Source: an uncultured Eubacteriales bacterium
GTDB lineage: Bacteria > Bacillota > Clostridia > Christensenellales > Aristaeellaceae
Direction of reading: 5' to 3'
NCBI GenBank assembly: GCA_902778995.1
Contig: CACYZW010000007.1
Coordinates: forward strand, 1-60,853
Length of the DNA stretch: 60,853 nt
In this document: piece after piece, positions 362-9,979 of the stretch
Layout of the letters: each line of letters begins with the position of its first letter
Numbering within the stretch: position 1 is the first letter of the stretch
The notes under the pieces: model-generated
The model's database searches: none
Told to the model about the DNA's origin: nothing
Seen by the model: only the letters and a program-made list of their open reading frames with translations
Position numbers and translations under genes: made by a program

Positions 362-494
362 GACGGTGCATAATCGAATCGTGCGGTAACGCGATGCATT
401 TGGCCGTTCGTGGACCGCCAATTTCGCAAGCTTGCTGGCGCAGTCAAGGAATTGCCATACGGCAGGCGGCTGGCAATCAGCCCTTATTTCCTTA
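362..494 (+). repeat. MITE-like element, internally deleted copy B
   Basis: It aligns with the full element at 26801-26968 over GCATAATCGAxTCGTGC, GCTTGCTGG, GTCAAG, GGCAGGCGGCTG and the end TTTCCTTA. It lacks about 25 nt near the right end. It overlaps the first in-frame start codon of the downstream gene, so the first ~28 codons of that frame are repeat-derived. Confidence 0.6.
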
Positions 495-1090
495 GTATAT
501 CTGCTTGTTCACCCGGCTACAACGACGTCGGGATGGATTGCCCTGTGAGGAGTGATGTTTGCTTGAATCTCAGCGGCTATTGCTTTACAGCCACCGGCAT
601 CACGCAATACGCTTTCTTTTTAGAGGACAAGGAGCAGGTGTGTGTATCCCATGTCGCTCTGCCGGAGGCGCCCGTGCGCCTTGAAAGTGCCTCGGGCGCG
701 GAATACGCACTGCTGCGCTCTCCCGTCTGGGATGACAGAGGAACGCCGCATGCGGACGCCTCTGTACCCTTTCTCAACGCGGACGGCAGGGAAGCCGGGT
801 ACCTGTACTTGCTCGGGGAGGATCGCTTCGCCGTCTCCGTTCCCGGCAACGCGTTCGCCGGTCGTGTCATAATGGATCGGCTGCGCCGCAGCGTATGCTT
901 CACAGGGCTGGACGACGTCCTCGTCGCCCGCCTGGAATACAGCTTCGCCCGCATGCCATCGCGGGAAAGGTTCGGCGAATGGTTCCCAAGGCGATATATG
1001 GCCGAGGTATTTAAGCATGTGGACGAAAGCCTGTTGACCTTCGCTCTGGCCGCCCCGTTTCTCGGCTTCGATGGCATCGATATCGGCTGA
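410..1090 (+). CDS. Unrecognised protein, start uncertain
   Basis: I do not recognise this protein family. The open frame is 226 codons, with no clear signal peptide, membrane segment or catalytic motif; the middle and C-terminal parts (residues ~50-215) have ordinary globular composition. The GTG at 410 lies inside a MITE-like repeat and has no ribosome site. More plausible starts are GTG 545 (a GGGATGG about 11 nt upstream) or ATG 533. The gene may be the 3' remnant of a longer gene whose 5' end was replaced by the repeat. It converges with the MBG-repeat gene ending at 1185; the ~95-nt gap holds a weak GTGTGT/ACACAC hairpin. The frame is uninterrupted and its base composition is like the neighbours, so I think it codes, but its function is unknown. 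Confidence 0.5.
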   Translation: MDRQFRKLAGAVKELPYGRRLAISPYFLSISACSPGYNDVGMDCPVRSDVCLNLSGYCFTATGITQYAFFLEDKEQVCVSHVALPEAPVRLESASGAEYALLRSPVWDDRGTPHADASVPFLNADGREAGYLYLLGEDRFAVSVPGNAFAGRVIMDRLRRSVCFTGLDDVLVARLEYSFARMPSRERFGEWFPRRYMAEVFKHVDESLLTFALAAPFLGFDGIDIG

Positions 1091-1184
1091 TCTGTTCTGA
1101 CCGCCTGGCATAAGGATTATATATTTACGGAAATACCGCTGCACACAGTGTGTGTATGGAAACACACTTCGGGATCGGGATGAA

Positions 1185-4100
1185 TCAATAGATCTCAAAC
1201 TCTATCGTTCGCTTTGCCGGCAGCATATAATTGCTGTTTGAAAGCTTCGTCGCTTTCGCGGTGTAGGTCCCTCTTTTCTTCATCGCGCCGGTTACCGTCA
1301 CCGTGCACTTGTCGCCCTTGATCAAGCCCGTGGCCCTGGCCGTGGGCGCGATTTTTTGGCCGGTATATTTTAATCTGGTTCCAGTCCATTTCAGACCAAC
1401 CGTCTTCTGTTTGATTCTGAAGGTCCTTGTTCTGTTCTTGGGCAGCGCATAGTTGCGATTGGACAGCTTGCTGGCCCGCGCCGTGTAGCTGCCGGCATTC
1501 TTTTTGGCCCCCGTCACGGTTGCCGTGCATTTATCGCCGTTTATGACGCCGGTTACCGTCGCGACAGGCTTTTGGACATTGCCGTTATAGGTCAGCGTCG
1601 TTTTTTTCCATTTCAGTCCAACCGTCTTCGGGGCTATGACAAATGCGTGGGTCGCATCGTCCGGCAGCGCATAGTTGCTGTTTGACAGCCCGCTCGCCCT
1701 CACCGTATAGCTGCCGGCTTTTTTCTTGGCCCCTCTCACCGTTACGCTACAGACGTCGCCCGAAATCAGTCCGACCGCCGTCGCCCTGGGCTTTTGAATC
1801 TTTCCGTTATATGTGACGTTGGCGCTCTCCCATTCCAGGCTCACCGGTCTCGGGGCGATATCAAAGGCCTGATTCGCATCGTCCGGCAAGGCGTAGTTGC
1901 CGTTGGACAGCGCGATTGCCTCAGCCTTGTAACTTCCCGCATCCTTCTGGGCGCCCGTCACCGTCACCGCACAAGCGTCGCCTTCTATCAGATTGCCAAT
2001 CGTCGCCGAAGGCGCCTGCAATGCGCCGTTATAGATGAAACTGGCGTTTGTCCAGACCAGCGTCGCTTTTCTCGGAGCAATGGTAAACGTCTGCAGCGCA
2101 TTCTGCGGCAGGACATAGTTGCCGTTGGACAACGCGATTGCCGCAGCCTTGTAACTTCCCACATCCTTCTGAGCGCCCGTCACCGTCACCGCACAAGCGT
2201 CGCCTTCTATCAGATTGCCAACCGTCGCCGCAGGTGCCTGCAATGCGCCGTTATAGATGAAACTGGCGTTTGTCCAGACCAGCGTCGCTTTTCTCGGAGC
2301 AATGGTAAACGTCTGCAGCTCATTCTGCGGCAGGACATAGTTACCGTTGGACAACGCGATTGCCGCAGCCTTGTAACTTCCCACATCCTTCTGAGCGCCC
2401 GTCACCGTCACCGCGCAAGCATCGCCTTTTACCAGATTGTCAACCGTCGCCGCAGGCGCCTGCAATGCGCCGTTATAGACGAAACTGGCGTTTGTCCAGA
2501 CCAGCGTCGCCTTTCTCTGGGCAATGGTAAACGTCTGCAAAGCATTCTGCGGCAGGACATAGTTGCCGTTGGACAAAGATGTCGCCTCGGCGGTATAATT
2601 ACCGACGTCGGTCTGTTCTCCATCAACCGCCACCGTACAGATATCACCGGAGGCCAATCCGGTTGCCGTTGCCGTGGGCGCGTGGCTGTTTCCGTCGTAG
2701 GTAAAGGCGGTATCCGACCAGCTTAACCCAACCGTCTTTGGCGCAATGGCGACGGTTGCCTCACCCTCGATTACTTTTGAATTGCCTGTATGGATATAAT
2801 AATATACCGGGTGTGTACCGACATCCGCCCATGTGGGGCTTTCAACGAGATCGTATACGCCCTTGGACGTGCCATAGGCGACGATCAACGCCGCGTCTTC
2901 GGAGCTGATCCGAATGCCGTGTTGCCGGCCATCGTAAGTGCCCGAGAATCCCTCCACGGCAAAGGCGGTTTCACAGGCAACCGTCGCGGTGACATCGCCG
3001 CAGGGCATCGTAAAGCGCCATTCCCGTTCGCCCGTCCGTTGCAGATCCAAGAACCCATCGCCAAACCGGACGACGGGCGCTACGGCCTTGTACCCGGCGT
3101 CAGGATTCACCGTCAGCGTGACGGTTGCGCCTGCGTCCGCCACGGAGGGGTTTGATATCAGCGCGCCCTGTTCGGCGGAGGCCTTCACGGCGTAGCCCTT
3201 GCCGTAATCCGCGCCGGACAGCGTCAGCCACTCTATGCCATACGTTGAAAGCATGTTGTCACCGTAGGTATACTGGAGCCCACCGCAGGTATAGGGCCCG
3301 CCGGGTTCGCCGGCGCAGCCCTTCATAAACAGCCTTCCTTCCCAGACGCTGCCGTTGTCGCTGTTGGTCAGATCCACCAGATACGTCCGTCCATCGGGCA
3401 TGCGCACCGCATTCCACATATGCGCCTCCGGGATGCCGCCGCTCATCAGCTCGCAGGCCACATCGCCCTCAAAGTCGCTCAGGTCACACAGGTACTTGAA
3501 CCCCTTGGAGTAGCCCTCGCAGACCACCTTTGTATTCTCGTCGCCGTCGAATATAAAGACCAGCTGCCAGGGATCTCCGTAGGAGAGGCCTTCGTAGTCC
3601 CAGTTGTAATCCACCAATTCGCAAATCTTTTGGGCGTAGGCCGTCAGCTTCGTTATGTCGTCCTTGCTGGTATTGTCTGAAACAATGGCCTTTATATTTG
3701 TCACCGCCGTATGCACCCGGGCGGGCAGATCGTTCACCTCGTAGGTTCCCACCGTTCCTGTTTTGGAATAGTCCGCAGAGACAGACATCTTCGCGGTCAA
3801 CTTCCCAAGTCGCGCATATTTCACATCGTCCTTTGTTATAAAGAATTTAGTATAACTCCATCCCATTCCCCCGCCAGTCGTCTTATTGAACCAATACAGC
3901 TCATAGGGATAATCCGCCAGCAGGGCCTGCATGATTTTTCTCTGGTTAAAGCCTTCTTTCGCCAAAAGCTTCATTCCCAAATTGGCGTCGTCGAGGCTCG
4001 ACAATCCCAATTCCTCCGCTGTCCACCAGTTGTTCGTCAGACCTGCGTCGTCATCATTGACGCTTAATTCCGTGGAAGTCCTCTCGCCCCCGGCAACCTC

Positions 4101-4757
4101 GCGGATCATGGGAACCAGGGCATCGTACAGCCTGAGGTTCAGCCCGCTCAGGCTCCTGCGCCCGGAGTAAGCCGAGCGATTGCTGTGCACACTTCCCATG
4201 CCCGGCAGCACCCGATTCAGGTAGCCCTCGAACAGCGTATCGTTGTCCGCGCTGCCGGAGGTTGTGACGTTCGCCAGGCTCTCCACGGCGTTCACAGCCG
4301 CGCCGTCCGGAGTCGCGGAATCATCGGGCTGCGACGCAAGTGCGGTTTCGTCCGCCACCGCCTCCGGCATCGCCTCGATCGCTTCCACGGACGCGCCGTC
4401 GATTTCCACGGATACTTCCTCATTTTGGTCGTGCGTATCGTAGCCGACATCTGAAGCATCTTCCGTTTGTACGATGACCTCACCCACAATTTCCAATTCC
4501 TGTGCGTCCACATCCTGAAGCGGCGCCAAATCGATCAGCGCATCCGAGAGCAGTCCGTCCTCCAAATCTATGTTCAGGGCAATGTCGCCGTCCAAGGGCA
4601 AGCCAAACCCGGGCGCGTTCTCAAGGATCCCGGCCTCTTCCATTTCTACTTCCATGTCCTTCGCTTCCGACGCGTCCGCCTGTGCGAACAGAGCCGACGT
4701 CAGCAGCGCCGACATTGCCAGAAGCAAAGTCAGCATCAGGCGTATCCGGCGATACAT
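1185..4757 (-). CDS. Secreted transglutaminase-like protein with MBG repeats
   Basis: A 1,190-residue exported protein. Residues 1-29 form a signal peptide ending near ALFAQADA, followed by a strongly acidic linker (~30-165). Residues ~340-470 form a transglutaminase-like core with a candidate triad Cys413 (VVCEGYSKG), His446 (EAHMWN) and Asp462 (YLVDLTNS). A beta domain resembling InlB/Flg_new repeats lies at ~525-595, then one degenerate and seven clear MBG-type beta repeats of ~74 residues (YNG...GDxC.VTV.GA...GSYxAxA..LSNxNYxLP). There is no LPXTG or SLH anchor; the last repeat reaches the C-terminus. The start is set by a GGGAGGG site about 8 nt upstream of ATG 4757. Likely role: peptide cross-linking, peptidase or adhesive function at the cell surface, inferred from architecture only. 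Confidence 0.85.
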   Translation of the reverse strand: MYRRIRLMLTLLLAMSALLTSALFAQADASEAKDMEVEMEEAGILENAPGFGLPLDGDIALNIDLEDGLLSDALIDLAPLQDVDAQELEIVGEVIVQTEDASDVGYDTHDQNEEVSVEIDGASVEAIEAMPEAVADETALASQPDDSATPDGAAVNAVESLANVTTSGSADNDTLFEGYLNRVLPGMGSVHSNRSAYSGRRSLSGLNLRLYDALVPMIREVAGGERTSTELSVNDDDAGLTNNWWTAEELGLSSLDDANLGMKLLAKEGFNQRKIMQALLADYPYELYWFNKTTGGGMGWSYTKFFITKDDVKYARLGKLTAKMSVSADYSKTGTVGTYEVNDLPARVHTAVTNIKAIVSDNTSKDDITKLTAYAQKICELVDYNWDYEGLSYGDPWQLVFIFDGDENTKVVCEGYSKGFKYLCDLSDFEGDVACELMSGGIPEAHMWNAVRMPDGRTYLVDLTNSDNGSVWEGRLFMKGCAGEPGGPYTCGGLQYTYGDNMLSTYGIEWLTLSGADYGKGYAVKASAEQGALISNPSVADAGATVTLTVNPDAGYKAVAPVVRFGDGFLDLQRTGEREWRFTMPCGDVTATVACETAFAVEGFSGTYDGRQHGIRISSEDAALIVAYGTSKGVYDLVESPTWADVGTHPVYYYIHTGNSKVIEGEATVAIAPKTVGLSWSDTAFTYDGNSHAPTATATGLASGDICTVAVDGEQTDVGNYTAEATSLSNGNYVLPQNALQTFTIAQRKATLVWTNASFVYNGALQAPAATVDNLVKGDACAVTVTGAQKDVGSYKAAAIALSNGNYVLPQNELQTFTIAPRKATLVWTNASFIYNGALQAPAATVGNLIEGDACAVTVTGAQKDVGSYKAAAIALSNGNYVLPQNALQTFTIAPRKATLVWTNASFIYNGALQAPSATIGNLIEGDACAVTVTGAQKDAGSYKAEAIALSNGNYALPDDANQAFDIAPRPVSLEWESANVTYNGKIQKPRATAVGLISGDVCSVTVRGAKKKAGSYTVRASGLSNSNYALPDDATHAFVIAPKTVGLKWKKTTLTYNGNVQKPVATVTGVINGDKCTATVTGAKKNAGSYTARASKLSNRNYALPKNRTRTFRIKQKTVGLKWTGTRLKYTGQKIAPTARATGLIKGDKCTVTVTGAMKKRGTYTAKATKLSNSNYMLPAKRTIEFEIY
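1980..2650 (-). repeat. 222-bp near-identical tandem repeats inside the MBG gene
   Basis: The motif CTGGCGTTTGTCCAGACC recurs at 2041, 2263 and 2485, exactly 222 bp (74 codons) apart, with only scattered substitutions between units 2-4 of the MBG array. Outer units are much more diverged. This pattern points to recent duplication or gene conversion in the centre of the array. Confidence 0.85.
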
Positions 4758-4805
4758 CCATCATCCCTCCCATCTGCAGATACAGGCACCATGCCTCCTA
4801 TTACT

Positions 4806-4834
4806 ATTTTACACCATTTTCCGCGATTTGTCTA
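4806..4834 (-). promoter_or_regulatory. Sigma-A promoter of the MBG-repeat gene
   Basis: On the minus strand TAGACA (4834-4829), a 17-nt spacer and TAAAAT (4811-4806) lie about 50 nt before the start codon. Confidence 0.6.
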
Positions 4835-5490
4835 TGCGGCATATGCAAAATGGAAACACAGCAAACGCCCAATAATCGTTACAGTTCAACCTGCGGTTTC
4901 GCAGTAACTGTCGAAAGGGGACAGGTCCTCCCTCGAACAGGTGCGGCGCTTCAATCCACAGGATTGAACCGACCGCATCCCGGCCTTTGGCCGGGATGGA
5001 GAATCTGAAAGGGTTTTTCCCCTTGACATCCCCCCCAAAATATGCTTGAACATCGAAGATAATCAAGCATAATCCGCAAGACAGGCATTTCCCAGAAGGA
5101 AAATGCTGCCATCAGTACCAAATATGTGGTTCAGGCATGGTTTCGCCACTCACAACTCGAATCAGCAAACATGTTGTGAAATCCCAAAGGTGTTATCCAA
5201 GGCTTTGCGACCCGTTAAACCAACAGATGTCACCAGTTTCTTTTCTTTTGCCCTTCGTTCAAAATGCGGCAGCGGTATACAACCGGCTGATATCGAGGCA
5301 AACCAAAGTCACAGCACATGGGCATCCTACGCCTCTATTTTTTAGAATATCGGGAAAAACAATACTTTTCATGCGATTTAAATCTGGCAAATCAGTATTG
5401 CTGTTTGAATTGATTATCCCTGTCGCGATTGCGATGAAGCGCAGTATAACTTCAGCCGTCGATGTGTCGCGAACATGAAGCGGTATTCCC
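4835..5490. other. Non-coding region with palindromes
   Basis: No convincing gene was found: the short open frames here lack ribosome sites and protein-like composition. From 4882 to 5020 there is a cluster of hairpins, including TTCAATCC/GGATTGAA (4950-4968, loop ACA) and CATCCCGGCC/GGCCGGGATG (4976-4998, loop TTT). A longer-loop palindrome TATGCTTGA/TCAAGCATA follows at 5040-5071. The remainder (5072-5490) is AT-richer and shows nothing recognisable. Confidence 0.6.
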
Positions 5491-5925
5491 TCAATGGTTG
5501 AGGATGGAAAACAGTATTTCGTCCAATTCCCAGATTGCTGCGAAGCCTCCTGCGACGAGCTGACTGCGTATTTCGCTGAACAGGTTCGTCAATTGCTCGC
5601 GTTCCTGCCGGTTCCAGACCGGCAGCCTGTCTTCCGGCAGCAGTTGCCCCAACAGGCATTCTTCCTGTTTGCTCAGTCGCACGCCGCTCATGCGCAGCCA
5701 ATCACAGCGTATGCCGTTGAATAACCGCGCCCGTTCTGCCGTGAATTCCCGGAGGGAGCCGTTGGATACACCGTCGCCGCTGAGGCAGCGATGTATATGA
5801 ACATCCGCAAGGCATGATATTTTCCCCACCCTGGACGCTTCCATATAGAAGCGGTAGTCCTCCAGGCCGGGGCAATCCTCCCGATACGAGAGATTCTTTT
5901 CCTCCAAAAACGACTTCCTGAGCAT
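5491..5925 (-). pseudogene. Glycosyltransferase, C-terminal fragment
   Basis: Third reading-frame segment of a broken two-domain glycosyltransferase. Read upstream to about 6000 in this frame, the segment continues the GT2 fold (SPKHYLAKLLTGN, then HSSAMLRKSF and EDYRFYMEAS), the conserved region that follows the donor-binding part of family-2 enzymes. The apparent ATG at 5925 is an internal methionine with no ribosome site. A one-base shift near 5990-6005 separates it from the middle segment; no homopolymer is present there. Confidence 0.75.
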
Positions 5926-5957
5926 TGCGGAAGAATGGCAGAATTCCAGATTACCCG

Positions 5958-6743
5958 TCAGCAGCTTCGCCAGATAATGCTTTGGCGAGCCGGCATTACA
6001 GCGGAATGCGCGACGATCCTGCCTTCCCGATCGATCACCGAGGCTGCCGTCCCCAGGATCATGACCTCCCTGTCGTTTTCCAAATAGCTCAGCTGCGCCC
6101 TCAGCCTTTCCGGAAGCGAAACGGCATCACCGTCCATCACGGCAATGTATTCGCCGCTGCTGACGCTGATAGCGCGGTTCATGGACGCGGCAATTCCCCG
6201 ACTACGGTCGTTTTCCAATAATCGAATCCTCGGGTCGGAAAAACCGCGAATCACATCGCGCGTCGCATCCGAGGAAGCATCGTCCACGATGATCAGTTCG
6301 AAATGCTGCCAGGATTGATTCAGAATGGAAGATACGGCCTCGGAAATATAAGCCTCCACATTGCAGGCCGGCATGATCACGCTCACGAGCGGCTCCCTCC
6401 CCGGGGGAAGCGGAGGCGTAAAAAAACGTTCCCGATTGATCCGCCACGCCCTTCCTTCCGGCCAGGCCTTTCCGGCCCTGCTGTTCCAGGCTTCAGATTC
6501 CTCGATTTTTCCGCTGTCATAGGCAAGCGCGCACAGCTTCAGGCAGGGAAGGTAATCGTCATAGCCCGTGAACTCGATCATATACGACGTAATGTCAACC
6601 GGCAGGGCTGTGGCAAGCCTGTACTGCCTTTGGGCTTCTCTGGCATCCCCCAGGCCCTCTGCGGCCAACCCCAGAGATAGCAAAAAAAAGCCGATCGCGG
6701 AACGTGATACTGCTCGACGGATGTGGAAATCAACTGTCGGCAC
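5958..6743 (-). pseudogene. Glycosyltransferase, middle fragment (TPR linker and second GT2 domain)
   Basis: Second segment of the broken glycosyltransferase. It starts in a helical TPR-like linker (GLAAEGLGDAREAQRQY) and then carries a GT-A family-2 domain: VSVIMPACNVEAYI, IIVDDASSDAT and the metal-binding DGD in AVMDGDAVSLPERL. Its N-terminus reads in continuity with the preceding segment if one T is added to the T8 run (minus strand of 6682-6689). It ends prematurely at 5958 after VMPARQSIIWRSC. No ribosome site precedes the apparent start, so it is not an independent gene. Confidence 0.75.
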
Positions 6744-7537
6744 TCGTCGTACGCCTTTAGTCTAAGGAGCATCTTCGTCATAAACACCATCGCGTACTGG
6801 ACGCGTTGGGCGGAAGGATTTGTCGCAAGCAGCGCCCGCCATGCCTCCAGCGCCCTGTCCCTGTAGTCCCGAAGCGCCAGTTCGCGGCAATAATAGGACA
6901 GCATGTAGGCGCCGGACAGCCTTCCGGCGCTCCTGACATCGTCAAATATCCGCATGTTCCGATTGGGTTCGTTCACATATTCCTTTTTATGAAGGATCGT
7001 TATTTCGGGGCAAAGGATTATGTTCATGCTGTCATCGATCGTTATGGCTTCATGAACGTCTCCTTGCCACCGGCAGGCGAGCGCACGTCGATGGATTCTG
7101 TCCCGCAGCCCCATATCGGACAGGAAACCGAAATTGTGGTAGGTCATGAAGACGCCATCCGTCTGAGGCGTCAGTCGCTTCTTGAGATCAATCAGCTTGC
7201 GTATCTCTTCCGGATACATGACATCGTCAGCGTCAAGCCACATCACAAAATCACAATGTGCTTTCGAAGCCGCATAATTGCGAGCCCTGGCAAAACTGTT
7301 CTGCCAGGGCTCGCTGAAAACGAGATCCGTGTATTCTCCGGCGATCTCTCTGCTCCTGTCCCTCGAACCGGTGTCCAAAATGATCAGTTCATCCGCAAAC
7401 TGTACGGCTGCGGACAGACAGCGCCCCAGAACCCGCTCTTCATCCTTGACGATCAGGCAGACGCTGAGGGTCGCCGGCGTTTGGGTCTGATCAGCACAAA
7501 TAGTGTCATTCAGCATCTTGAATACAGTATCAGGCAA
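6578..7537 (-). pseudogene. SunS-like family-2 glycosyltransferase, N-terminal segment
   Basis: Start of the broken glycosyltransferase. TTG 7537 has an AGGA site about 11 nt upstream and lies 36 nt after the stop of the double-glycine peptide gene, so the two are probably co-transcribed. Residues ~24-125 form a GT2 domain (LSVCLIVKDEERVLGRC, IILDTGSRDRS, DAD in FVMWLDADDVMYPEE) of the SunS/WcaA-like type often followed by TPRs. Residues ~210-285 look helical and TPR-like. True coding leaves this frame at the T8 run (6682-6689); the last ~35 residues are out-of-frame sequence. SunS-type enzymes glycosylate bacteriocin peptides, but many relatives act in polysaccharide synthesis. The lesion may be real, phase-variable or a sequencing error. 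Confidence 0.75.
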
Positions 7538-7573
7538 AGCTCAAAATCCTATGTTCACCAGGTAATAATGAAA

Positions 7574-7750
7574 TCATTTGATGCTGCCTGAGCGATCACC
7601 GGAATTTTTGATGTCCGCCGAGTTAAAATTGCTTCCGTTGAAGGCTACCGTGTTTATTTCTGCGCCACCGTTGGCCTTCTCTATCTGTTCCATCGTCAGG
7701 TCTTCCACGTCCAGCGGGCGATTGTTATCCGCTTTTACAGTTTTCTTCAT
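7574..7750 (-). CDS. Double-glycine leader peptide, putative RiPP/bacteriocin precursor
   Basis: A 58-residue peptide. The start is ATG 7750, because AAGGAGGA sits 7 nt upstream of it; the other ATG at 7756 is only 1 nt from that site. Residues 1-29 look like a double-glycine leader: LDVEDLTMEQIEKANGG has Leu at -12, Ile at -7 and Gly-Gly at -2/-1. The predicted 29-residue core starts AEINTVAFNGSNF, lacks Cys, and is rich in Ser, Asn and Gly. The next gene, 36 nt downstream on the same strand, is a SunS-like glycosyltransferase, so Ser/Thr glycosylation of the core is possible. No peptidase-containing ABC exporter or immunity gene is visible. Alternative: a signalling peptide. Leader call fairly sure; function inferred. 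Confidence 0.65.
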   Translation of the reverse strand: MKKTVKADNNRPLDVEDLTMEQIEKANGGAEINTVAFNGSNFNSADIKNSGDRSGSIK

Positions 7751-7816
7751 CTTCATTTCCTCCTTGTCCGCAGCGATGGGATATACGGAATCCAAAGCAA
7801 ATCCGTATTTGTTAAG

Positions 7817-7845
7817 AGTGTATTGCATCGTGATTGCCATATCAA
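7817..7845 (-). promoter_or_regulatory. Probable promoter of the leader-peptide/glycosyltransferase unit
   Basis: On the minus strand TTGATA (7845-7840), 17 nt, TACACT (7822-7817), about 65 nt upstream of the peptide start codon. Confidence 0.5.
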
Positions 7846-7941
7846 TATAATTACTTGAATTTAACATCCGAACTTTCCAGCGACGCTTCCGGTCTGTCTG
7901 GCCCCTGGATGCAGCCGCCTATGGCTTTTGGCTCGATTATG

Positions 7942-7950
7942 TGTTATACT
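7942..7950 (+). promoter_or_regulatory. Extended -10 promoter of the DUF2974 gene
   Basis: TG-T-TATACT fits an extended -10 element. No good -35 is seen at the right distance. It lies about 65 nt before the ATG at 8015. Confidence 0.45.
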
Positions 7951-8014
7951 GGCAGCGTACATTGTGGTCTGAACCGTTTCCCAAGGGAAAGGCAAAACGG
8001 AGGGTGAGCACTCT

Positions 8015-9100
8015 ATGGATGGATTGTATGATTACATTTTGTGGTTGGGTGATTATCCTTTCACAGCCGTCCCTTTTCAGGAAGTGGACGCGGTCATTTT
8101 GTGCCTGTTGGTCTATTGTGACTTCACACCGCTGTTTGAGCAGGCGGACGGCGTTTATCTTCGCGACAGTCAAAAAATGATAGACGCGGGGGAAGTGCGC
8201 GTTCAACGCATCGGAAAGCCCGAACCCTTTATTCAGATTCTGAAGGCTGCCGCCTCTTCCCGGCGATTTGGCGAGCTATACCTGTCCGGTTATGTGGACA
8301 TCATGCTTTCCGAGAATACAATTCAGTTTTCTGCTGTTTCCTATCACTGTGATGCGGGCTGGTCTTTCATCGCCTATCGCGGCACCGATTGTACGCTGGC
8401 TGGCTGGAAGGAAGACTTCATGATCAGCTACAAGCGCACGCATGCCCAGGAACTGGCGCGGCAATATGCGGAAAATCGCATCGATTCAGATCACGTCTGG
8501 TACATCGGCGGCCATTCAAAGGGCGCAAATCTTGCGCTGTATGCCGCCTGTACGATAAAACAGGAACAGCTTTCGGGCGTCAAAGGCATATTCCTTCTCG
8601 ACGGGCCTGGCTTCTGCCCGGATGTGATGGATCCCGGCATCATCAACAGGATCGAATCCCGCGTCACCCGCATCATTCCCGGTTTTTCCGTGATCGGAAG
8701 GCTTTTTGAGCCGAAGATCAAATGTACCCATATCGTTCGATCCGCTGTTTCCGGCTTTAACCAGCACGACCCTGCCACCTGGGTCATCGATCATGGAAAA
8801 CTGGCAACCCTTTCACAGACCGATTCGTCCAGTGATCTTATCAAAACGATGTTGGACAATTGGATCGGCAAAATACCACGGGAGGACAGAGACGTCTTTA
8901 TAAACGATGTCTTTGACGCGTTGGGCTCCAGTGGCGCCGAGACGCTGGAGGGCCTTAGCGACCATGGTCACAAAGGCTACGAGGCGATGATAAACAGGTT
9001 TAAGGAGTCCAGCGAAGTCACCAAACGCATCCTCATGGATCTGTCGCGCCAGGCGTTGCAGGTAATCATCAAGGCACTGTTTCACAGGAACGAGAGCTGA
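8015..9100 (+). CDS. DUF2974 (Mbeg1-like) alpha/beta hydrolase
   Basis: A 361-residue soluble protein. Residues ~118-190 show the lipase-like core: FIAYRGTD, then the nucleophile elbow GGHSKGANLALYAA (Gly-His-Ser-Lys-Gly around the catalytic Ser), a hallmark of the Mbeg1-like/DUF2974 family common in Firmicutes. Later Asp and His residues (LLDGPGF; VIDHG) could complete the triad. There is no signal peptide or membrane segment, so it should act in the cytoplasm; the substrate is unknown, and a lipid or ester is only a guess. The start is supported by GGAGGGTG about 9 nt upstream of ATG. It is transcribed divergently from the leader-peptide unit and stands alone. Confidence 0.8.
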   Translation: MDGLYDYILWLGDYPFTAVPFQEVDAVILCLLVYCDFTPLFEQADGVYLRDSQKMIDAGEVRVQRIGKPEPFIQILKAAASSRRFGELYLSGYVDIMLSENTIQFSAVSYHCDAGWSFIAYRGTDCTLAGWKEDFMISYKRTHAQELARQYAENRIDSDHVWYIGGHSKGANLALYAACTIKQEQLSGVKGIFLLDGPGFCPDVMDPGIINRIESRVTRIIPGFSVIGRLFEPKIKCTHIVRSAVSGFNQHDPATWVIDHGKLATLSQTDSSSDLIKTMLDNWIGKIPREDRDVFINDVFDALGSSGAETLEGLSDHGHKGYEAMINRFKESSEVTKRILMDLSRQALQVIIKALFHRNES

Positions 9101-9193
9101 AATCAGCGTTCCTGACCGTCTGTCATTCGCTGACGCGCCGCCAGACGCAGTACGGCCCACGCAGGTCCCCTGACGGAAATCGCCTTCTGCCGT

Positions 9194-9979
9194 CTACCCC
9201 ACCTCTTTGGCCAGCGCCTCCATCATCTCGCCCGTGACCGGGCAGATGGCGCTGATATAGAGCGTATCCCGCGTCGCAAGCAGCTTGCGCGCCCCGGCGT
9301 CGTCGCCGTCCTGGTGCAGCATCCGCGCCAGGTAGTAGATTGTCGTGATCTGACGGGGCTTGCGCGCATGGGCCTTTTTGTAATAATCCAGCGCCTGGGC
9401 GCGGTATTCCGCCGCTTTCCCGCCATCCGCCTCAGCCTCTGACATCAGCTCATAGAGCTGCCCCATGTTGTCCAGCACGGCGGCGTCCTCGTCGTCGTAG
9501 TCCATGGCCTGCCGGTTGAAATCCAACGCCGGGCCGAATTCGCCGGTCTGCCTGGCCTTGTCCACCCAGTACATGCCCAATGTGCCATAGACGCTGCCGT
9601 TCATGCCCTTTGCGGCGGCGCGCCCGATGGTCTCCATCGCCCTGTCCAGCTGACCCGTGACCCACAGATAGATCGAATACTGAACGCGAAGCTGGAACCA
9701 GTCCGCTTCGGACAGCCCCTTCTGCCGGCTCATGGCCTCCATCAACTCGCGGGATCTTTCAAATTCGCCCTCCCGCAACAGCAGCAGCGTATAGGCCTGC
9801 ATGATGTTGGGCGCCCTGTTCCCCATGCGCTCGGCCTCGTCGTACAGCTTCAATGCCGCCTGGTATTTTTCCTTTGCCTGGGCTGTCTTTCCCTCGCCGG
9901 TCAGCTTGTTGGCGTCCACATGGGTCCGGTAGGCGCGATTTCCCGTATATGCCGCCTTTGCCGTATCAAATAGTCCCAT
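9194..9979 (-). CDS. TPR-repeat protein
   Basis: A 261-residue helical protein with at least four tetratricopeptide-like repeats, for example KEKYQAALKLYDEAERMG (N-terminal third), YSIYLWVTGQLDRAMETI (centre) and AQALDYYKKAHARKP (C-terminal third). No signal peptide or membrane segment. It overlaps the 3' end of the upstream exonuclease gene by 14 nt on the same strand, so translation is probably coupled. The upstream exonuclease itself ends in a similar repeat-like helical region, which suggests the two act together. TPR proteins are protein-interaction scaffolds; the partner is unknown. Confidence 0.75.
   Translation of the reverse strand: MGLFDTAKAAYTGNRAYRTHVDANKLTGEGKTAQAKEKYQAALKLYDEAERMGNRAPNIMQAYTLLLLREGEFERSRELMEAMSRQKGLSEADWFQLRVQYSIYLWVTGQLDRAMETIGRAAAKGMNGSVYGTLGMYWVDKARQTGEFGPALDFNRQAMDYDDEDAAVLDNMGQLYELMSEAEADGGKAAEYRAQALDYYKKAHARKPRQITTIYYLARMLHQDGDDAGARKLLATRDTLYISAICPVTGEMMEALAKEVG

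What the first reader, a model, noticed from the sequence alone, without database searches (positions are those of the whole stretch)
5491..7845. Double-glycine peptide next to a SunS-like two-domain glycosyltransferase
A 58-residue peptide with a convincing GG leader (start fixed by an AAGGAGG site) is followed after 36 nt by a glycosyltransferase with two GT2 domains joined by TPR-like helices. SunS-type enzymes glycosylate GG-leader bacteriocins (established for sublancin), but here the core has no Cys and is Ser/Asn/Gly-rich, so it would be a Cys-free glycopeptide class, possibly O-linked. No exporter or immunity gene is visible, so it may be a decaying or minimal locus.
Basis: partly seen in the sequence, partly recalled or inferred. 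Interest (0 to 1): 0.75.

Follow-up and report, generated by a model that had tools for sequence, protein, structure and literature searches.

The report
Double-glycine peptide with sugar-adding enzyme
In an uncultured Clostridia genome a small peptide built for export sits beside a damaged enzyme of the kind that attaches sugars to proteins, and a related bacterium carries a complete version of a like pairing, which points to a little-known kind of sugar-decorated peptide without cysteine.

The parts
7574..7750 (-). 58-aa double-glycine precursor peptide (29-aa leader, 29-aa Cys-free core)
   Evidence: its 97-aa open frame has no Pfam or NCBIfam match at E <= 1; one match in its own genome, itself; best other match in 200 family genomes E 0.034
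7664..7750 (-). leader MKKTVKADNNRPLDVEDLTMEQIEKANGG; C39-type cleavage expected after GG
   Evidence: position-by-position reading; consensus recalled
7577..7663 (-). core AEINTVAFNGSNFNSADIKNSGDRSGSIK, 0 Cys, 6 Ser/Thr, 5 Asn
7759..7765 (-). ribosome-binding site AAGGAGG, 8 nt before the ATG at 7750
6578..7537 (-). GT piece 1: SunS/SgtA-like GT2 catalytic domain plus first helices (reliable frame 6689-7537)
5958..6743 (-). GT piece 2: rest of the helical domain plus a second GT2 domain (EpsE/TuaG-like)
   Evidence: PF00535 E 1.6e-33; NCBIfam EpsE 108 bits, below cut-off; linker weakly matches the C-terminus of ~360-aa relatives, E 1e-3 to 2e-5 among the 30 rows shown
5491..5925 (-). GT piece 3: C-terminal end of the second GT2 domain; only match in the fetched set is itself

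Best explanation
The locus is, or recently was, a two-gene cassette for a sugar-modified exported peptide. The 58-aa precursor is made first. A SunS-fold protein glycosyltransferase of the SgtA/collagen-glycosylating branch then puts a sugar (GlcNAc by analogy) on Ser/Thr of the unfolded, Cys-free core. The fused second GT2 domain extends the sugar to a disaccharide. The leader is cut after Gly-Gly and the peptide exported in trans by one of the two NHLM-type C39-peptidase exporters elsewhere in the genome. The cassette is specific to this lineage, and its GT gene now has two frame changes, by decay or by assembly error. Shown here: peptide anatomy, enzyme families and fold, the exporters, absence from 27 genus mates, and a second intact pairing with exporter in a related genus. 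Inferred: acceptor, sugar, linkage, role of the second domain, export in trans, recent acquisition, biological activity.
Against: Only one other pairing among 259 distinct GT loci, and the leader pattern alone is not enriched (p 0.22). Of 43 NHLM loci examined, only that same one has such a GT. Window and L305 peptides share the plan but no clear sequence. The GT has two frame changes, so it may make nothing. Nearest kin act, where known, on collagen-like proteins. No C39 exporter in the window and no immunity or regulator gene recognised by eye beside it. No relative in 27 other genomes of its genus and none of the L305 GT in 4 others of its genus. Low GC at third positions covers the whole 0.4-9.1 kb end of the contig, neighbours included, so it does not mark the cassette as foreign by itself. 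A joint origin of the two GTs is neither shown nor rejected (p-AU 0.27). A large MBG-repeat surface-protein gene (1185-4757) on the same strand is a possible alternative acceptor.
Confidence: 0.58

Rival explanations
1. The GT is a stray, diverged member of the collagen-protein (SgtA/BclA-type) transferases, and its proximity to the GG peptide is accidental.
For: Nearest relatives often lie beside collagen-like genes; leader-pattern adjacency is not significant by pattern alone; GT broken.
Against: No PF01391 match in the own genome, though it is 83% complete; 36-57 nt spacing on one strand; the second pairing with exporter in L305.
Confidence: 0.2
2. The GT modified the MBG-repeat surface protein encoded downstream (1185-4757), as its cousins modify repetitive surface proteins; the peptide is an unrelated GG bacteriocin or signal.
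For: Same strand; repeats with many Ser/Thr; MBG_2 repeats; low GC3 shared with the GT (0.70); cousins sit beside surface proteins.
Against: A gap of about 730 bp against 36-57 nt to the peptide. Pairing of MBG genes with such GTs elsewhere was not searched for.
Confidence: 0.12
3. The locus is dead: the genes are remnants and nothing is made now. (This concerns the present state and can be true together with any of the others.)
For: Two frame changes; low coding scores of the peptide and GT pieces; absent from 27 genus mates.
Against: The peptide with leader and RBS is intact, and the acidic motifs of both GT2 domains are there by eye (recalled motifs); frame A changes at an 8-base run, where sequencing or slippage errors are common.
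Confidence: 0.35

Closest known systems
Glycocins (sublancin/SunS, thurandacin/ThuS, glycocin F, enterocin F4-9, thermoglycocin)
   Same: GG- or related-leader precursor beside a SunS-fold GT, C39 export; O-GlcNAc on Ser/Thr has precedent (enterocin F4-9, PMC8620827 abstract; ThgS on Ser and Cys, PMC12457901 abstract)
   Different: No Cys in the core, hence no disulfides; GT nearer collagen-protein transferases by sequence; second GT2 domain fused; no C39 exporter in the window
SgtA/BclA-type collagen-protein O-GlcNAc transferases
   Same: Same ~360-aa GT2 plus helical domain; gene beside its acceptor; acts on flexible Thr peptides in vitro (PMC7157674, passages)
   Different: Acceptor here would be a short double-Gly peptide; no collagen match in the genome; extra C-terminal GT2. 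SgtA itself was not compared by sequence
GmaR (PDB 22ao; flagellin transferase by recall)
   Same: Best solved-sequence match of the catalytic domain, E 7.5e-23
   Different: Matched only at residues 23-127; no flagellin gene seen beside the window locus
NHLM/NHLP peptide export systems
   Same: C39-peptidase ABC pair at two places in the own genome; GG leaders of like form in some NHLM loci of the family
   Different: The window peptide is not encoded in an exporter locus

Membership tests
glycocin | precursor with double-Gly or related C39-cleaved leader | tested here: met
   (sequence anatomy only)
glycocin | Cys residues forming two structural disulfides ('All glycocins...', PMC8620827 passage) | tested here: not met
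   core has 0 Cys
glycocin | SunS-family enzyme at the curated NCBIfam cut-off (TIGR04195, 350 bits) | tested here: not met
   42.3 bits for piece 1; the intact L305 enzyme 63.3
glycocin | SunS fold of the transferase | tested here: met
glycocin | C39 exporter in the cluster | tested here: not met
   PF03412 matches in the genome lie on C26 and C108 only, the window being C7
glycocin | thiol-disulfide oxidoreductase and immunity genes in the cluster | tested here: inconclusive
   none recognised by eye in the gene calls up to 30 kb; only seven ORFs near the finding were scanned with profiles
glycocin | sugar on the core peptide, antimicrobial activity | not testable with these tools
   needs mass spectrometry and assay
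SgtA/collagen-protein transferase | GT2 plus helical C-terminal domain of ~360 aa | tested here: met
   piece 1 aligns to such proteins; the linker of piece 2 weakly matches their C-terminus
SgtA/collagen-protein transferase | collagen-like acceptor gene | tested here: not met
   no PF01391 match at E <= 0.001 in the own genome (genome 83% complete; control rings in 3 of 14 genomes)
NHLM export substrate | double-Gly leader and an NHLM exporter in the genome | tested here: met
   TIGR03796 906 and 938 bits, TIGR03797 719 and 725 bits, over cut-offs
NHLM export substrate | encoded in the exporter locus | tested here: not met
   exporters on contigs C26 and C108, window is C7; the L305 peptide does lie beside its exporters

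The most novel reading that the evidence does not exclude
Clostridia carry a class of Cys-free, double-Gly (or Gly-Ala) leader peptides that are O-glycosylated by transferases recruited from the collagen/spore-protein O-GlcNAc branch and exported by NHLM C39 transporters. The window form builds a disaccharide with a fused two-transferase enzyme. This would be a glycopeptide class that needs no disulfides.
Probability: 0.4. Interest if true: 0.75.

Novelty: new variant of a known kind. Interest (0 to 1): 0.55.

Why it matters
Glycocins described so far are cysteine-bearing peptides held by disulfides (PMC8620827 passage). A Cys-free, sugar-modified, C39-processed peptide made by an SgtA-type enzyme would link surface-protein glycosylation with small-peptide biosynthesis. 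It would show how acceptor range changes in this transferase family and give a small, testable system (L305) for peptide O-glycosylation without disulfide chemistry.

Tried and rejected
Homologues of the peptide itself: none in viral contigs (11 pattern hits, 0 confirmed). At E <= 1, 15 of 200 family genomes match, the own one included; the best other E is 0.034, and at least four of the weak matches are other GG-leader peptides by eye.

Synteny: three genus mates have 64-66% orthologues of the neighbouring gene 8015-9100; in the 16-20 kb fetched around them neither GT nor peptide was found.

Same fused architecture: among 295 ORFs that match piece 1 (own copies included), ten also matched the second GT2 domain outside it. 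Six have the opposite order. Three long viral-contig ORFs (L171, L199, L224; 1056-1575 aa) have the window's order, but with weak second hits (12-18 bits). One is a different single GT. No close counterpart was found.

L305 GT: 1 of 5 genomes of its genus, itself; 0 confirmed in viral contigs; 40 plasmid records, the 10 listed at 32-33% identity.

Order-wide search with piece 2: 3 of 396 genomes, own included; the others match in the GT2 part only.

Collagen counts come from a repeat pattern in my scripts, not a profile; the 84 of 191 counts repeats anywhere in the fetched locus.

Trees: the first lost the L305 row to de-duplication and the size limit; repeated with it. L301 (E. faecalis pTEF2, glycocin type by recall) and L279 sat on very long branches in the first and were left out of the second.

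Phage records: 12 match, none named as SunS or SPbeta. GmaR (22ao) is absent from the fold lists, which I do not read as evidence. Promoter and terminator scans: near chance for terminators (4 against 3.5) and weak for promoters (7 against 3.2 expected).

Paper searches for a Cys-free glycocin class showed none among the titles and abstract starts listed (11 of 11, 17 of 17, 15 of 95, 12 of 256, 12 of 483); on the bacterial group gave nothing of use. I read passages of three papers only.

Full report
What is there. The window is contig C7 of a 3.88-Mb, 239-contig genome, 83% complete. One genome of its family has a 19,260-base contig that matches a Candidatus Avichristensenella record in length and hit position (G046:C82, L106), so this is a Clostridia family; the link is inferred. 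On the minus strand a 58-aa peptide (7574-7750) has a strong ribosome-binding site and a canonical double-glycine leader; its 29-residue core has no Cys. The GT open frames follow after 36 nt (57 nt from the first ATG).

What its relatives do. In searches that overlap in genomes, relatives were found in 20 of 200 family genomes (E <= 1e-20), 18 of 396 order genomes (E <= 1e-42) and 96 of 391 class genomes (E <= 1e-15), own genome included; the nearest are about 35-46% identical. Of the 80 best loci of a genome-wide scan, 46 have collagen-like ORFs within about 8 kb, against 0 of 45 control loci of the family (NHLM and synteny regions, mean 15 kb for the 40 NHLM ones) by the same pattern (Fisher p 2e-12). 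By a looser test over whole loci it is 84 of 191 de-duplicated rows. Of three Bacillaceae plasmid loci opened, two carry annotated collagen-like genes, one does not, having spore-coat genes and wecB nearby. Longer forms sit beside flagellins or a recurrent surface protein in many of the loci I could see (output partly cut). C. difficile SgtA, 358 aa, adds beta-O-GlcNAc to Thr in collagen-region peptides of BclA3, and its gene is immediately upstream of bclA3 (PMC7157674, passages). By neighbourhood and length, then, an O-glycosyltransferase of flexible peptides is a better guide than S-glycosylating SunS. The own genome has no PF01391 match.

The second pairing. Scanning 259 distinct GT genes for leader-bearing small ORFs gave 16 pattern hits within 800 nt. 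Only two were on the same strand within 40 nt: the window and L024, whose larger region is L305. L305 (G017, another genus of the family) holds two ABC exporters best matched by TIGR03796 (718 bits) and TIGR03797 (518 bits), both under the curated cut-offs, the first with the peptidase part of the model. Convergent to them lie an intact 363-aa GT and, 23 nt behind it, the 51-aa peptide MNDNLEKNTLLTDSELEELLDEDDLDNVSGA|FSINRPPQGGDVGRNVDISF, again Cys-free. The control rate of the leader pattern beside other long genes is 3 of 1208 (the L305 GT left out); Fisher p 0.22, so pattern adjacency alone is not significant. The exporter beside L305 is what makes that case strong. Of 43 NHLM loci examined (40 regions fetched from the capped list, plus L053, L054, L305), only L305 has a GT of this family, and none of 4 other genomes of its genus has it: the pairing is rare.

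Evolution. In a careful 47-row tree the window GT and the L305 GT are the two longest end branches (3.22 and 2.81; median 0.47) and fall on the side of the ~360-aa, often collagen-neighboured enzymes (100/100 against nine longer forms). Holding the two together is not rejected (p-AU 0.27), but long branches make their place unsure. The window GT is in 1 of 28 genus genomes, its own. GC at third codon positions is 0.59 (peptide) and 0.65, 0.67, 0.68 (pieces 1-3) against 0.82 +- 0.05 for 26 high-scoring window genes. The neighbours 410-1090, 1185-4757 and 8015-9100 are low as well (0.68, 0.70, 0.63), so this marks the whole end of the contig, not the cassette alone.

Export. The own genome carries two NHLM exporter pairs above the curated cut-offs (906/719 and 938/725 bits), so cleavage and export in trans are possible. 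Some NHLM loci of the genus carry GG-leader precursors of similar form (L344, L352, L353).

A third, looser parallel. In L279 (another family of the class) a 591-aa SunS-like GT (40 bits, under the cut-off) lies behind two precursor-like genes. One was scanned and is Os1348-type (64.5 bits, cut-off 40); the other resembles it by eye. Both have Cys-free Ser-rich ends. Beside them lie a peptide-prenyltransferase-like and a daptide-protease-like gene, both under their cut-offs. This fits the idea that this GT superfamily is used on RiPP precursors without Cys, but the enzyme is only distantly related.

Verdict. The peptide as a double-Gly precursor: my estimate 0.85. That the GT's acceptor is or was the peptide: 0.58, lowered from 0.6 after the GC3 check. 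It fails glycocin membership on Cys and on the curated enzyme score; it works like a glycocin locus in plan. The frame changes mean the window copy may be inactive or misassembled; L305 is the copy to study.

Noticed in passing
L305 (G017:C75:1-16000), 1164-7180: Complete candidate cluster: small unassigned ORF upstream of the exporters (no NCBIfam match), C39-peptidase ABC, second ABC, intact SgtA/SunS-type GT and a 51-aa Cys-free Gly-Ala-leader peptide.
   Followed up: yes
L279 (G585), 1289-9255: RiPP-like cluster with two precursor-like genes (one scanned, Os1348 type) with Cys-free Ser-rich ends, a 591-aa SunS-like GT, a LynF/TruF-like prenyltransferase and a daptide-protease-like gene (both under cut-off), and two radical-SAM-like genes by eye.
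   Followed up: partly
L343 (G052:C40) 1375-5190 and L305 1-3818: The exporter region is 92% identical in DNA between two genera of the family, suggesting transfer or misbinning; the L343 contig ends before the peptide/GT position.
   Followed up: partly
L344 1591-1878, L352, L353, L373: NHLM loci of the family carry GG-leader precursors; some have SH3-like cores (NVRTGPGLGY... type), an unusual cargo.
   Followed up: no
L003/L056 (G131:C61): Tandem GG-leader peptides (KPLEPAELTDDQLEDVAGG type) with CxxC zinc-ribbon-like cores on the contig of an NHLM exporter.
   Followed up: no
L054 10442-10708: 88-aa peptide with GGG leader and Cys-containing core beside one of the window genome's own NHLM exporters.
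   Followed up: no
window 410-9100: The genes at this end of the contig all have low GC3 (0.59-0.70) against 0.82 for most of the window, as if the whole segment were a younger or foreign region.
   Followed up: partly
window 6682-6689: First frame change of the GT lies at a run of 8 identical bases, which could be an assembly error or slippage (phase-variation-like).
   Followed up: no
window 1185-4757: 1190-aa secreted-looking protein with MBG repeats and a weak match to a transglutaminase-related lipoprotein model, downstream of the GT on the same strand.
   Followed up: no
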